A DNA stretch of 49,840 bases from a virus. The stretch covers positions 1 to 49,840 of the IMG/VR virus record IMGVR_UViG_3300022542_000375, one strand, 5' to 3'. Below, piece after piece: positions 14,268 through 19,847 of the stretch. The notes under the pieces are model-generated. The model was not told the origin of the DNA. It worked only from the letters and a program-made list of their open reading frames with translations, and ran no database searches. The position numbers and the translations under genes are program-made. The stretch's first letter is position 1. Each line of letters begins with the position of its first letter.

Positions 14268-15500
14268 GTGCAGAGCGTCGAACTTCTAATCCTCAAATTA
14301 TTTTTAGAGGACAAACAAAAATGGCGTAAATATGAAAGATATTTTTCCACTGATTCTTTAGAACCAGAATTTAAGGTTATATTGAATTGTATTAAAAAAT
14401 ATTATAAAACATATAATTCAGATAGTATAGTTTTTTCTGAGTTGAGTATAATATTTGAAACAGAATATCCGAATATAAAAGGCCCGGAACTATATGCTGG
14501 TATCTTTGCAGACCTTAAGGCTTTACCATTAAATCAACAACTTGCCAATGATCTCATTTTACAATTTGTTGAAAAGGATTTTACCAATAGAATTATAAAT
14601 AAAGGCATTCAAAATCTCTCTGGTAATGTTAATGGTATTATGGTGGAGATTGAACAACTTGTTCATACCTGGAATGAGATTAAGGGTGGGTTTGTTTCTG
14701 AGGAAGCTGAAAATGTTTTTTATGATTTAGATTTACAGACCTTGGTGGATAAGGAGATTAATGCAGAAGGTTTATCGTGGCGACTCAAAGAGTTTAATGA
14801 TCATTTAGGCCCACTGCGTGGGGGAAGGCTAGGACATATCTTTGGATCAAGGGATGCCGGGAAGACATCATTATGGATGTCTGAAATGTCGTACTTTGCT
14901 AAACAGTTATTCCCAAATGAAAATATTATTTGCGTGAATAATGAAGAACGTAAAACTAAGGTAGGGATGCGTATATTTTGTAGTGTGCTTAATGCAACAC
15001 AAAGGCAAATAGAGAACAACATGGAACGAGCTTCTATAGCATTCCGAGAACGTAACGGACACCTCATACGATTGTATGATAGAGATAAAGTCTATTTTGA
15101 TGACATTGAAGCATTGATTAAAGAGTTTCGCCCACTTATTATGATTATTGATAATGCGGACAAAGTACGGTTTAAATCCCATGGAAGGGATTTGGAAGGT
15201 GAAGCCCGGATAAGTTTCTTATACCAGGAGTATAGGCGTTTAGTAAAGAATTATGAGTGTGATATTATCACAGTTGGACAAGCCTCAAAAGAAGGAAATA
15301 ATAGAAAATTTTTAACTGATGACCTTATGGCTAAATCAAAGGTAGATAAGCCTGGTGAGATGGATTTTGCTATTGGGATAGGTGTTACAGATAAGGTTCA
15401 AGCAACAAGATATATAAGCGTCTGTAAAAATAAGGATGGTCCTCATGGTGGATGGGTGTGTACTCTTGACCCTGAGCGAGCGAGGTTTAGCGGAATCTAA
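14268..15500 (+). CDS. replicative DnaB-like helicase, 410 aa
   Basis: Unwinds DNA at the fork as a hexamer. Walker A is GSRDAGKTS (residues 193-201), Walker B IMIIDNAD (291-298), followed by a QxSKEGN-type motif (VGQASKEGN) and the C-terminal ISVCKNKDGPHGGW seen in T7 gene 4-like helicases. The N-terminal 150 residues are helical and not primase-like. The start is GTG; an out-of-frame ATG overlaps it two bases ahead. A hairpin terminator follows directly. Confidence 0.85.
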   Translation: MQSVELLILKLFLEDKQKWRKYERYFSTDSLEPEFKVILNCIKKYYKTYNSDSIVFSELSIIFETEYPNIKGPELYAGIFADLKALPLNQQLANDLILQFVEKDFTNRIINKGIQNLSGNVNGIMVEIEQLVHTWNEIKGGFVSEEAENVFYDLDLQTLVDKEINAEGLSWRLKEFNDHLGPLRGGRLGHIFGSRDAGKTSLWMSEMSYFAKQLFPNENIICVNNEERKTKVGMRIFCSVLNATQRQIENNMERASIAFRERNGHLIRLYDRDKVYFDDIEALIKEFRPLIMIIDNADKVRFKSHGRDLEGEARISFLYQEYRRLVKNYECDIITVGQASKEGNNRKFLTDDLMAKSKVDKPGEMDFAIGIGVTDKVQATRYISVCKNKDGPHGGWVCTLDPERARFSGI

Positions 15501-15616: not shown

Positions 15617-16231
15617 ATGTATGATAATAGGCTGCATAAGCATGATTATGAAATAAAAGAAATCTCATATAAAGATGCTATGAAGATAGTGCTTGAAAAA
15701 CATTATTTACATAGAAAATGTCAAGCATCATTTAAATTTGGACTCTTTAAAAGAGATAATGATCGTTTATTGGGCATTATTACATATGGCACACCAGCAT
15801 CACCTACTGCATGTAGTGGTGTGTGTGGTCCTGATGAACGTAATAATGTTATTGAATTGACTCGGCTATGGATCCATGATTCAGTCCCTAAAAATGGGGA
15901 GAGTTATTTAATTGCTCATACATTAAAATTAATACCAAAGAATATTATTATTTCGTATGCAGAAGTAGCCCAAGGACACTTGGGTATAGTTTATCAATCA
16001 ACCAATTGGTTTTATGTTGGTTTGACGTTAAAGCGTACAAATAGAGTAAAGATAGATGGTACTGAAACAAAGCACAATCGAAGTCAATGTTATGATAAAG
16101 AAAATACAGTATTAGTTGATAGACCAAGAAAACATAGGTATGTGTATTTTCTTGGATCCAAAAAAAGAAAAAAAGAACTCCTTAAAAAGTTAAGGTATTC
16201 AATTTTATCATATCCGAAGGAGATACCATGA
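15617..16231 (+). CDS. Mom-like DNA adenine-modification protein, 204 aa
   Basis: Mom of phage Mu is an acetyltransferase-fold enzyme that modifies adenine so that host restriction enzymes cannot cut. Segments here fit Mom-like phage proteins: EKHYLHRKCQASFKFGLF, LLGIITYGTPAS, ELTRLWIHDSVPKNGESYLI, IISYAEVAQGHLGIVYQSTNW and FYVGLT. AAAGGAGG precedes the ATG, an excellent site. It begins a new unit after a terminator and a repeated regulatory element, so it is probably controlled separately. The C-terminus is very basic. The chemical product cannot be told from sequence. Confidence 0.7.
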   Translation: MYDNRLHKHDYEIKEISYKDAMKIVLEKHYLHRKCQASFKFGLFKRDNDRLLGIITYGTPASPTACSGVCGPDERNNVIELTRLWIHDSVPKNGESYLIAHTLKLIPKNIIISYAEVAQGHLGIVYQSTNWFYVGLTLKRTNRVKIDGTETKHNRSQCYDKENTVLVDRPRKHRYVYFLGSKKRKKELLKKLRYSILSYPKEIP

Positions 16232-16470
16232 AAAAGTATGATTTTTTAAGTTTAGATTGGGAACCTACTACAGAAGAAACAAAGTTCAAACCGGGGATGG
16301 TTGTTGAAACACGTCTCGGTCACCAATATATACTTGGTGAGCTTATCCCTGATGTTGATCAACGATCTGCTGCTGGTGCTGGATGTGGGTGTTGTAGCTG
16401 TGACTATGACTCGGAAATCACTAAGTTTCACATTGTAAAATGGGCATGGTTGTGTGAGGACTTATGTTAG
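16228..16470 (+). CDS. unknown Cys-rich protein, 80 aa
   Basis: ATG after GAAGGAGATA. After a charged start, the middle has AGCGCCSCDYDSE, a cluster of four Cys that may bind metal. Seven bases overlap with the polymerase gene. The pattern FKPGMVVETRLG suggests a small beta barrel. Function unknown. Confidence 0.6.
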   Translation: MKKYDFLSLDWEPTTEETKFKPGMVVETRLGHQYILGELIPDVDQRSAAGAGCGCCSCDYDSEITKFHIVKWAWLCEDLC

Positions 16471-17609
16471 TATTGGATGTGGAGACTACGAAAGCCCCAA
16501 AGTTCCTTCCTTGGCTTCCTGGCTCATATATAGTATCAGTACATGGGTATGATGGGAAGAATCGATATACATGGTTGTTTAATCATCCTGAGGCCCTTAA
16601 AACATTTGCGCAAAATGTATCAGAGATACAACAAATGGTTGATAATACTGAGATGGTAGGGGGCCATAATTTTAAGTTTGATATGCATTGGCTACAGCGT
16701 ATTGGTGTGGATATGACACGGATATGCTTATACGATACAATAGTTGCTGAGTATATCATTAAAATGCAGGATACCACAGTTCGTCTATCATTAGACAAAC
16801 TTGCAGAGCGATATGATTTACCATTGAAATTAGACATAGTGAAGTCTTATTGGGACTCTGGATATGATACAGATGAAGTACCTGCTCATATGTTAAGCGA
16901 ATATGGTGAGTGGGACTGTGTATTAACATACCTTGTTCGTGAATATCAGCTTCCAATAATTAAAGAGATGGGTTTGGAAAGAGTAATCTCTATGGAAATG
17001 GAGATGCTTCGGGTATTGGTTGATATAGAATTTAATGGAATGATGGTTGACATTTCATTATTGGAGTATTATAGTAAAGAGTATGAAATCGAGATCGAAA
17101 AGTGCGATGAAGAATTATCACAATTATTAGGTGATATAAATCTGAGTAGTGGTGACCAATTATCATGTGTTCTGTATGGAGGTACTTATCAAAAAGATGG
17201 GGTGGAGACAGTGAATCGGACATTAAAGTCCGGGAAAATCAGAACATATGAACGTAAGTGTCAGATTCCTGTTGTTGTGAAAGGCCTTGGTATTAAACCA
17301 CTTCCTAAGACTGAATTAAAAAAGTCCGGCTTTTATTCTACAAGCGCACCTACGTTAAAGCAATTAAAATGTACTACAAAAATCCAGAAACGGGTTGTTC
17401 AGTTAATACAGGAACGAGCGAAGTTGGTTAAGCTTAAGAGTACCTATTTTGATAAGCTGTTGGAGGATCAAATTGATGGATATATCTATCCTTCATTGAA
17501 TCAATGTCGCACAGCAACAAGCCGATTAAGCTGCTCAAACCCCAATAATCAGACAATACCGCGCATCACTAATGCGCCTGTAAAGAAGGTATTCATATCA
17601 AGATATTAA
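16464..17609 (+). CDS. family A DNA polymerase, N-terminal fragment (3'-5' exonuclease and thumb), 381 aa
   Basis: Exonuclease motifs are intact: LDVETT (D5, E7), HNFKFDMHWL (D73) and YGEWD (Y147, D151). The end carries the thumb/palm entry TATSRLSCSNPNNQTIP and stops after KKVFISRY, where normal polymerases continue with motif A within a few residues. The rest is encoded from 18646. The two parts together (624 residues) are close to T7 DNA polymerase (704). Both parts must fold together to give an active enzyme. Confidence 0.9.
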   Translation: MLVLDVETTKAPKFLPWLPGSYIVSVHGYDGKNRYTWLFNHPEALKTFAQNVSEIQQMVDNTEMVGGHNFKFDMHWLQRIGVDMTRICLYDTIVAEYIIKMQDTTVRLSLDKLAERYDLPLKLDIVKSYWDSGYDTDEVPAHMLSEYGEWDCVLTYLVREYQLPIIKEMGLERVISMEMEMLRVLVDIEFNGMMVDISLLEYYSKEYEIEIEKCDEELSQLLGDINLSSGDQLSCVLYGGTYQKDGVETVNRTLKSGKIRTYERKCQIPVVVKGLGIKPLPKTELKKSGFYSTSAPTLKQLKCTTKIQKRVVQLIQERAKLVKLKSTYFDKLLEDQIDGYIYPSLNQCRTATSRLSCSNPNNQTIPRITNAPVKKVFISRY

Positions 17610-17614
17610 AACAT

Positions 17615-17803
17615 TTGATAAGAAAATATCAGCGATGGGAAGCAGGGGTGATAGATTATATTGCGTTTGGTCCCGTATGGCTTAGGGAAGAAGAAACTGC
17701 TATATTAATGAAACACTTATGGCAGCGCGAGGTACTTATGCCAGATCATTTTACATTAGCAATAGAGGCATATATTGAAAAAAAAAGAATCATGGCCAGC
17801 TAA
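17615..17803 (+). CDS. unknown protein in the polymerase insert, 62 aa
   Basis: TTG start five bases after the polymerase fragment stop; the ribosome-binding site is weak (AAGAAGG farther upstream). Helical (REEETAILMKHLWQREVL). First of four overlapping small genes separating the two polymerase fragments. No recognised family. Confidence 0.45.
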   Translation: MIRKYQRWEAGVIDYIAFGPVWLREEETAILMKHLWQREVLMPDHFTLAIEAYIEKKRIMAS

Positions 17804-18092
17804 GTGGAAACGTTTATATGTTGAAAATTGTATAAAATGTGTAGACATTATGATTAAAGCTATGAAGGAAAGGGAAATGAATTCCTTACGAGGACAAAGG
17901 GCTTATTATCCTTCTGTTGATGATATAAAGATTTCCCAAGAAATGGAGGACGATGATCAATATAAACTGAGTGATAAAGAAAGGTGGGGGATAACTGATG
18001 ATATGGAAGCAGCTTATCAAGTGATTCAAATTGAATCTTTAGTTAATAAACGCCGGGGACGAGTAAGAAAGAAAGGTAAGTGGGAATTATGA
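17775..18092 (+). CDS. unknown charged protein in the polymerase insert, 105 aa
   Basis: TTG start with GAGG six bases ahead. Strongly charged: basic ends and an acidic middle (SQEMEDDDQYKLSDKERWGI). Its stop overlaps the next start (ATGA). No endonuclease or splicing motif is visible, so it does not look like a homing gene. Confidence 0.55.
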   Translation: MKKKESWPAKWKRLYVENCIKCVDIMIKAMKEREMNSLRGQRAYYPSVDDIKISQEMEDDDQYKLSDKERWGITDDMEAAYQVIQIESLVNKRRGRVRKKGKWEL

Positions 18093-18358
18093 AAAAGGAA
18101 AATTTCAAGAGAGCCGGAATATTAATAAACGGAATAGCCCGACTTGACAATATTGTTTCTTTATTTGGGAAGCCCATGATAGGACGTGAATTATATCGAG
18201 AGATATATGAGGCTCTGTGTTATGGGCAAATAGAGGGTATTCTAACTGATGCACAAATGGCACGCTTTGAAGACATTAATGTTGATGCTGCGATTGCGTT
18301 GAAGTTGTTATGCCAACAACGATTGTATGAACTTGTCCATGAATTTAAATCATTATAA
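18089..18358 (+). CDS. unknown helical protein in the polymerase insert, 89 aa
   Basis: ATG overlapping the previous stop. Helical; segments LYREIYEALCYGQIEG and AAIALKLLCQQRLYELVHEF. No recognised family. Translationally coupled to its neighbour. Confidence 0.55.
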   Translation: MKKENFKRAGILINGIARLDNIVSLFGKPMIGRELYREIYEALCYGQIEGILTDAQMARFEDINVDAAIALKLLCQQRLYELVHEFKSL

Positions 18359-18371
18359 TGGAGATGGAATT

Positions 18372-18641
18372 ATGATACTTGCAGTACTTGAACGAGCAGT
18401 AGAACTGCGTAAGATAATTAATCGTTTTAAATATTTACATGAGACAATTATGAATGCTGAACCTACGGCGTCTGCGGTTGTGGGGGTTTTAGAAGATGTT
18501 CAGTATGATATGGCGATGGGGTATGTATCTGTTACCGATACTGAGATTATCGCTAATGCAACAACGAGTATGCTTTGCGCCCTTGAAAGAGCTGTTAGTA
18601 ATGTAATCTACAGATTAAACATAGAATTCGACGAGCTATAA
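18372..18641 (+). CDS. unknown helical protein in the polymerase insert, 89 aa
   Basis: ATG 18372 with GGAG just upstream; the longer frame would overlap the preceding gene. Alternating helices (ILAVLERAVELRKIINRF, TTSMLCALERAVSNVIYRL). The two ERAV segments hint at an internal duplication. Ends four bases before the second polymerase fragment. Confidence 0.6.
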   Translation: MILAVLERAVELRKIINRFKYLHETIMNAEPTASAVVGVLEDVQYDMAMGYVSVTDTEIIANATTSMLCALERAVSNVIYRLNIEFDEL

Positions 18642-18645
18642 TCCT

Positions 18646-19377
18646 ATGATACTTGATGCAGACCTTAGCCAAATTGAGTGGCGTGTCGCAGCCTTCCTAT
18701 CACGGGATAAAATAATGTGTGATGAAATTCGTAGAGGAATTGATCAACACGATAGGACTTGCATTGATTTGATGGAATTAGAATTGACGAAGGAGAATAG
18801 AACATCCGCAAAAAATGCTAATTTCAGATTGATATATGCTAATCCGAAAACGTCTTGGTTTGGGTTCTATAGAGACCCCAACATGCCAGACTTCCCACAA
18901 GGGAAGTGGAAGGTTATTGTAAATGGTTTCTTTGAAAAATATGTGGGATTGGCTGCATGGCATGTAAAAATTATTAATGACGTTCAACATAATGGATATT
19001 TACGTGGTCCTACAGGACGCTATTGGACGTTTAAGAAACATGTTCAAAAAGAAGGGTACTTAGACTACAATACAAATCAGATACGTAATTATCCGGTACA
19101 GGGAATGGCCGGTGATATCATTAAGTTAGCATCAATAATGATTAGAAAACGAACACAGCATATCCCCAACCAAAAAATGATTATGATTGTGCATGATGAT
19201 ATCGTGTTTGATTTACATCCTGCTGTTGTAGAAGAAGTGGCTGTGATATGTATTAAAACATTTAATGATATTCCAATACTTTTGGAGAAGGCTTTTAACA
19301 TTAACTTTGATTTACCCATTGATGGTAGTGCCTGTTTGGGGAAATGTTGGGGTGATGTAAAGGAAATAATTTTATGA
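18646..19377 (+). CDS. family A DNA polymerase, C-terminal fragment (palm and fingers), 243 aa
   Basis: Begins MILDADLSQIEW, which is motif A (catalytic Asp at 6), so the split lies right before the active site. Motif B is RTSAKNANFRLIYAN (R52, K56, Y64); motif C is VHDD (182-185). All catalytic residues are present, so the protein should be active if it joins the N-terminal fragment. There is no good ribosome-binding site; translation may be coupled to the gene ending at 18641. The end overlaps the start of an HNH-type frame. Confidence 0.9.
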   Translation: MILDADLSQIEWRVAAFLSRDKIMCDEIRRGIDQHDRTCIDLMELELTKENRTSAKNANFRLIYANPKTSWFGFYRDPNMPDFPQGKWKVIVNGFFEKYVGLAAWHVKIINDVQHNGYLRGPTGRYWTFKKHVQKEGYLDYNTNQIRNYPVQGMAGDIIKLASIMIRKRTQHIPNQKMIMIVHDDIVFDLHPAVVEEVAVICIKTFNDIPILLEKAFNINFDLPIDGSACLGKCWGDVKEIIL

Positions 19378-19847
19378 TAAAAGATATACAAGGATTACGA
19401 TTTGGACGATTGATTGTAGGTACATACGTTGGTAGTGACAATCACGGCAAAGCCCAGTGGTGGTGTTTGTGAGATTGTGGTAATGAAACTGTAGTTACAG
19501 GTGATAAATTAAGAAGAAGGCACACAAAATCATGTGGTTGTTTAGGGAAGGAGTGCCATACTATACACGGAAAAAGTTATAGTAAGGTGTACGGCGTTTG
19601 GCGGGCAATGTTAGCCCGGTGCCGGAACCATAACAATAAAGCTTTTGATAATTACGGTGGGCGTGGAATTAAAGTTTGTGATGAATGGCATTATTTCAAA
19701 AATTTTTATGGGGATATGGGCGATCCGCCCCCAAAACACACACTTGAACGTGTTGATAACGATGGTGATTATACACTTAAAAATTGTAAATGGGCTACAA
19801 GGAAAGAACAACTCATGAATCGTCGTCCATATAAACAAAGGAAATAA
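19374..19847 (+). pseudogene. HNH-type endonuclease frame broken by one TGA
   Basis: The frame runs from ATG 19374 to 19847 with a single TGA at 19470-19472. Around it the protein reads WWCL-stop-DCGN and later SCGCL, so the stop replaces a zinc-binding Cys. The second part (VWRAMLARC, NYGGRGIKVCDEW, TLERVDNDGDY and NCKWATRKEQ) matches a common phage endonuclease-like family. A restart at GTG 19587 is possible but lacks a proper ribosome-binding site. Sitting next to the split polymerase, it is probably a decayed homing gene. Confidence 0.75.

What the first reader, a model, noticed from the sequence alone, without database searches (positions are those of the whole stretch)
16464..19377. Family A DNA polymerase split exactly before motif A by a four-gene insert
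The first fragment stops at KKVFISRY and the second begins MILDADLSQIEW; normal enzymes join these within a few residues. All exonuclease and polymerase residues are intact, so this is a working split, not decay. The 1.04 kb between holds four overlapping small genes with no endonuclease, intein or intron signature. This suggests either a two-subunit polymerase, perhaps with the insert proteins as partners, or an undescribed intervening element.
Basis: partly seen in the sequence, partly recalled or inferred. Interest (0 to 1): 0.85.

Follow-up and report, generated by a model that had tools for sequence, protein, structure and literature searches.

The report
Phage DNA polymerase in two pieces
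This uncultivated phage makes its Pol I-type DNA polymerase as two separate proteins that very probably reassemble; comparison with about 100 related phage sequences shows that the break is real, is not an intron, has arisen or been undone several times at the same spot, and only later collected unrelated small genes.

Summary
Confirmed: the family A polymerase is divided into PolA-N (16464-17609, exonuclease plus the N-terminal polymerase part) and PolA-C (18646-19377, motifs A, B, C). Joined end to end they lack about one residue compared with an unsplit relative. The 1,036-bp gap holds four orphan genes and no intron, intein or endonuclease signature.

The same seam occurs in 81 related loci, with gaps from -17 bp (overlapping frames) or -1 bp (TAATG) to 3.6 kb and unrelated genes inside. 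Overlapping halves leave no room for an intron, so fission came first and the four genes are most likely passengers. A genuine group I intron in one relative (motif B) was detected strongly, validating the negative here. Both halves are under purifying selection and fold confidently alone.

The split was published in 2023 for phages MEP401/402, where an intron was suspected; this survey argues against that. New here: unsplit relatives interleave, so the tree needs four fission/fusion changes, three at one palm hairpin. HNH homing endonucleases entered the seam in some relatives; in five contigs this comes with a frame-breaking insertion in motif A that resembles the T4 gene 60 bypass cassette.

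The parts
14268..15500 (+). DnaB-like replicative helicase, upstream member of the replication block
   Evidence: PF03796 E 2.5e-5, below Pfam's cut-off; homologues upstream of PolA-N in relatives such as L012, L013, L014
16464..17609 (+). PolA-N: 3'-5' exonuclease, thumb and first part of the palm; ends SRY-stop
   Evidence: PF01612 and PF00476; AlphaFold2 pLDDT 91.9, weakest in the last ~30 residues that would pack against PolA-C; PDB matches to Pol I
17607..18648 (+). Seam: from the PolA-N stop codon to the PolA-C start codon, 1,036 bp between the genes
   Evidence: the same seam in relatives with gaps of -17 to +3598 bp
17615..17803 (+). Small ORF A (62 aa, TTG start), likely passenger gene
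   Evidence: no Pfam/PHROG match; no match in relatives' loci
17775..18092 (+). Small ORF B (105 aa, TTG start), likely passenger gene
   Evidence: no convincing family match; no phage match; none in relatives
18089..18358 (+). Small ORF C (89 aa from ATG, ATGA overlap with ORF B), likely passenger gene
   Evidence: no convincing family, phage or viral-contig match
18372..18641 (+). Small ORF D (89 aa from ATG 18372), likely passenger gene; stops 4 nt before the PolA-C start
   Evidence: no convincing match
18646..19377 (+). PolA-C: remainder of palm plus fingers, motifs A, B, C; starts with the motif A strand
   Evidence: PF00476 E 9.6e-35; AlphaFold2 pLDDT 95.9, first strand residues 2-7; Klenow match from chain position 378; Foldseek Pol I / Pol theta
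19374..19847 (+). HNH endonuclease gene starting in an ATGA overlap with the PolA-C stop, interrupted by an in-frame TGA; uninterrupted part 19587-19847
   Evidence: phrog_374 E 7e-36; sequence; homologue in L014 lies between helicase and PolA-N

Best explanation
A split family A replicative polymerase. The gene was cut into two cistrons at the hairpin joining two adjacent palm strands, just before the motif A strand. Each half has its own reading frame and start (shown by sequence; often overlapping frames with start signals in relatives). The two proteins are inferred to associate without a covalent link, pairing the C-terminal strand of PolA-N with the N-terminal strand of PolA-C to rebuild the palm and active site. 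Fission came first, probably as an overlapping stop/start (inferred from relatives); the seam later became a landing site for unrelated genes, here four small orphan genes carried as passengers in the same operon.
For: Same seam in close and distant relatives, with halves overlapping by 17 or 1 bp, abutting, or separated by up to 3.6 kb. 37 of 49 PolA-C ATG starts have an SD-like motif against 18% of control ATGs. Seam genes are non-homologous between subclades. Both halves have dN/dS 0.05-0.20 in MEP-like pairs. Catalytic residues conserved. Both halves give confident models matching Pol I, and the least certain region of PolA-N is the tail that would pack on PolA-C. The split family B polymerase 43A/43B of T4-related phage 25 co-purifies and is active (PMC2988022).
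Against: No biochemical evidence for any split family A pair was found. PolA-C in the window lacks a clear SD and may depend on coupling to ORF D. Association of the halves was not modelled as a complex. In loci with a -17 bp overlap a frameshift fusion cannot be excluded. dN/dS was measured in the MEP-like clade, not in the window's own, which is too divergent.
Confidence: 0.86

Rival explanations
1. The gap is a self-splicing intron (group I or II) that restores one reading frame, as suspected for MEP401/402 in the 2023 paper.
For: Phage DNA polymerase genes are classic intron hosts, and one relative (L105) does carry a group I intron, in motif B. PMC10580990 raised the possibility for MEP401/402.
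Against: No intron match here at E<=10, whereas L105 scores 86.5 bits. PolA-N has its own stop within about 0-15 residues of the seam and PolA-C almost always its own start there. Many relatives have overlapping or abutting halves with no room for an intron. The window insert is packed with coupled ORFs.
Confidence: 0.03
2. The four insert proteins (or one of them) are obligate third subunits that hold the halves together.
For: They are co-oriented, partly overlap, and sit between the halves. In the MEP-like clade a small acidic ORF occurs in the seam of 37 loci.
Against: No homologues of the window's four ORFs in the nearest split relatives L012, L013, L014 or elsewhere in what was searched; many split relatives have no seam gene at all.
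Confidence: 0.06
3. Split-intein trans-splicing joins the halves.
For: A putative split intein interrupts the family B polymerase of phage MIJ3 (PMC6892783).
Against: PolA-N ends at SRY and PolA-C begins at the motif A strand, with no room for intein halves.
Confidence: 0.005
4. The polymerase is a decaying or inactive relic.
For: Fission can be a step to gene loss; the motif C residue E883 is D or S.
Against: dN/dS 0.05-0.20 in both halves of relatives, conserved catalytic residues, and the motif C change is shared with unsplit relatives.
Confidence: 0.03

Closest known systems
Split DNA polymerase of Methylophilales phages MEP401/MEP402 (PMC10580990, 2023)
   Same: Family A, exonuclease plus N-terminal part in one ORF, C-terminal part in another, same seam, small unrelated ORF between.
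   Different: The window belongs to a different lineage in which unsplit polymerases interleave; the AU test rejects one clade of window+L012+L013 with the MEP-type rows (p 0.00013). Insert content is unrelated and larger.
gp43A/gp43B split family B polymerase of T4-related Aeromonas phages (reviewed in PMC2988022)
   Same: Replicative polymerase encoded as two cistrons that co-purify with activity; a homing endonuclease is associated in phage 25.
   Different: Family B, not homologous; there a homing endonuclease or untranslated spacer lies in the seam, here small ORFs.
Icepovirus ICP2 and Vibrio phage VP41s3 polymerases
   Same: Family A split before motif A; ICP2 nearly abuts (9 bp), VP41s3 has one gene in the seam.
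   Different: Break about 17 residues upstream of the window's seam: a separate event by position and by tree.
Phage genes split by homing endonucleases (T4 gene 39/60 with bypass; Aeh1 nrdA)
   Same: Essential phage gene divided, with endonucleases in the break in some relatives (PMC2988022, PMC5009743).
   Different: No endonuclease in the window's own seam.

Membership tests
Family A DNA polymerase (PF00476, exonuclease PF01612) | Exonuclease and polymerase motifs A, B, C | tested here: met
   caveat E883 to D
MEP401-type split family A polymerase | Two ORFs cut at the hairpin before motif A | tested here: met
MEP401-type split family A polymerase | Common descent of the split | tested here: inconclusive
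   AU p 0.00013 against one clade with MEP-type rows; four state changes. One old split with later re-fusions is not excluded.
Group I / group II intron | Conserved catalytic RNA fold in the insert | tested here: not met
   positive control L105
Inteins / split inteins | Splicing blocks at the ends of the two halves | tested here: not met
   halves end and begin at polymerase residues
Homing-endonuclease-interrupted gene | Endonuclease ORF inside the break | tested here: not met
   no endonuclease match in ORFs A-D; an HNH gene lies just downstream of PolA-C
Two-subunit reconstituting polymerase | Halves bind each other and polymerise DNA | not testable with these tools
   needs co-expression; no complex prediction available
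Zobellviridae (virus family) | Shared core genes and capsid/terminase phylogeny | not tested
   only the replication block was compared

The most novel reading that the evidence does not exclude
The palm hairpin before motif A is a natural, reusable fission point of family A polymerases: phages have split (or split and re-fused) the enzyme there at least three times, plus once 17 residues upstream, without any mobile element being needed; the seam then recruits genes, including homing endonucleases that in some relatives force ribosomal recoding through motif A.
Probability: 0.45. Interest if true: 0.75.

Novelty: new variant of a known kind. Interest (0 to 1): 0.6.

Why it matters
A replicative polymerase cut next to its catalytic aspartate is a strong natural test of how an enzyme tolerates fission. 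Relatives in every stage (unsplit, overlapping stop/start, short spacer, many genes) let the path be read: fission first, insertion afterwards. That speaks to the intron suggestion left open in the 2023 paper. It also points to natural split points for two-part family A polymerases, and the interleaving of split and unsplit enzymes makes repeated fission versus re-fusion testable.

Tried and rejected
Intron: Rfam at gathering and at E<=10, with the L105 intron as positive control. Intein: no extra sequence at either half. Assembly error: excluded by relatives. Partner role for the insert ORFs: no conservation. Single-sequence scans of viral contigs with the window's halves gave nothing; alignments were needed. 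Promoters in the insert: promoter-like sites are fewer than in shuffles, so no claim is made. The same-seam split rows as a single clade: rejected by AU tests. An internal restart for the frame-broken PolA-C of endonuclease-bearing relatives was considered and judged unlikely: it would drop the motif A aspartate and has no matching ATG in L053. Five of the ten hits of the motif A break pattern scan (L122-L126) were unrelated to polymerases.

Full report
OBSERVATION. The window is a whole IMG/VR virus record. PolA-N (16464-17609) and PolA-C (18646-19377) are on the + strand in a replication block after a DnaB-like helicase. Pfam PF00476 is covered in two pieces with six profile columns between them; against Klenow, PolA-C starts at chain position 378 of 1d9d, at the motif A strand. 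The gap of 1,036 bp holds four small co-oriented ORFs with no convincing family match, no match in phages for B, C and D, none in viral contigs for C, and none in the fetched relatives for any of the four. GC of insert and halves is the same (0.37). Rfam finds no intron.

SURVEY. Alignment-based scans of viral contigs plus annotated phages gave 103 loci with both halves, L105 aside: 85 split (the window included) and 18 unsplit, one of these (L107) a doubtful distant hit. Near-duplicates are counted, and the sample is biased to MEP-like sequences because the queries were split polymerases. Apart from the ICP2-type records (L007, L008, L112) the break is at one seam: PolA-N stops about 0-15 residues after SR[YF] or its counterpart, and PolA-C starts M[IL]L..D. 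Among 54 non-redundant split loci the gap runs from -17 to +3598 bp; 20 have 60 bp or less and 11 overlap. QDWS535 has TAATG; L014 has TAGTG with an SD GAGGAGGAA encoded in the tail SEEE. Overlapping frames cannot hide an intron. 37 of 49 PolA-C ATG starts carry an SD-like motif against 18% of control ATGs.

SEAM CONTENT. Seam ORFs fall into many unrelated clusters: a small acidic ORF in 37 MEP-like loci, a zinc-ribbon protein in L012 and L013, an R67-type DHFR-like ORF in MW202697, a cytosine methyltransferase and others in MW202796, and HNH endonucleases in L013, L053, L084, L085, L091. So the insert is variable cargo.

PHYLOGENY. A tree of concatenated halves needs four changes of split state (4-4 across bootstraps): the MEP/QDWS535 group (all split), window+L012+L013 (support 97/98), L014 alone among unsplit relatives, and ICP2+VP41s3, whose break lies about 17 residues upstream. 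AU tests reject window+L012+L013 with the MEP group (p 0.00013), window+L012+L013+L014 (p 2e-47) and all same-seam rows (p 1e-61) as one clade. The groups were named after seeing the split states, and an early fission followed by re-fusions would also need several changes; so repeated fission, or fission with re-fusion, is what is shown, and the direction is inferred.

FUNCTION. dN/dS is 0.05-0.20 in both halves of MEP-like pairs. AlphaFold2 gives pLDDT 95.9 for PolA-C and 91.9 for PolA-N, with Pol I matches in the PDB. The last ~30 residues of PolA-N are the least certain, as expected for a strand that lacks its partner. Reassembly without a covalent link is inferred, by analogy with gp43A/43B (PMC2988022).

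LITERATURE. PMC10580990 describes the same split in MEP401/402 and most related metagenomic genomes and leaves an intron open. No other paper on split family A phage polymerases was found in the open-licence library searched; subscription papers were not searchable.

SIDE FINDING. All five contigs that carry one 149-aa HNH-type endonuclease in the seam (L053, L084=L115, L091, L114, L116) also carry a duplicated PolA-C start and a 4- or 6-nt frame-breaking insertion (the 6-nt one brings an in-frame TAA) between motif A codons QL and EW, with matching codons on either side (CTT/CTT, CTG/CTG). A pattern scan of all viral contigs found this break in polymerase genes only in these contigs. Sequence after the break has dN/dS 0.13. 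[quoted passage not shown]

Noticed in passing
L053 6423-7035; L091 2084-2701; L084 376-978; L114, L116: 149-aa HNH-type endonuclease in the polymerase seam with a sigma70-like promoter sequence (TTGACT-17-TATACT), a duplicated PolA-C start and a 4- or 6-nt frame-breaking insertion between motif A codons QL and EW; downstream sequence still under purifying selection. Looks like a small counterpart of the T4 gene 60 bypass cassette.
   Followed up: partly
L013 6493-7010; L005 5040-5090: One-base frame breaks in motif A of PolA-C: L013 with an HNH_3 endonuclease in the seam whose N-terminus looks like a captured PolA-C start (MIVDADL), L005 without an endonuclease, in a run of A. Sequencing error not excluded.
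   Followed up: partly
window 19374-19847: HNH endonuclease gene overlapping the PolA-C stop (ATGA) with an in-frame TGA where a cysteine codon would be expected in its zinc-binding part; pseudogene or recoding unknown.
   Followed up: no
L105 6200-6400: Group I intron of about 201 bp (RF00028, 86.5 bits) in motif B of an otherwise unsplit relative.
   Followed up: yes
window 15617-16231: Mom-family DNA modification gene (PF25680, E 4.4e-42) just upstream of the polymerase.
   Followed up: no
window 18646-19377 and relatives: Motif C is VHDD here and VHDS in nearly all relatives aligned, split or unsplit, instead of VHDE.
   Followed up: partly
L014 6960-7010: Youngest-looking fission: overlapping TAGTG whose SD is encoded by the tail SEEE of PolA-N, nested among unsplit polymerases.
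   Followed up: yes
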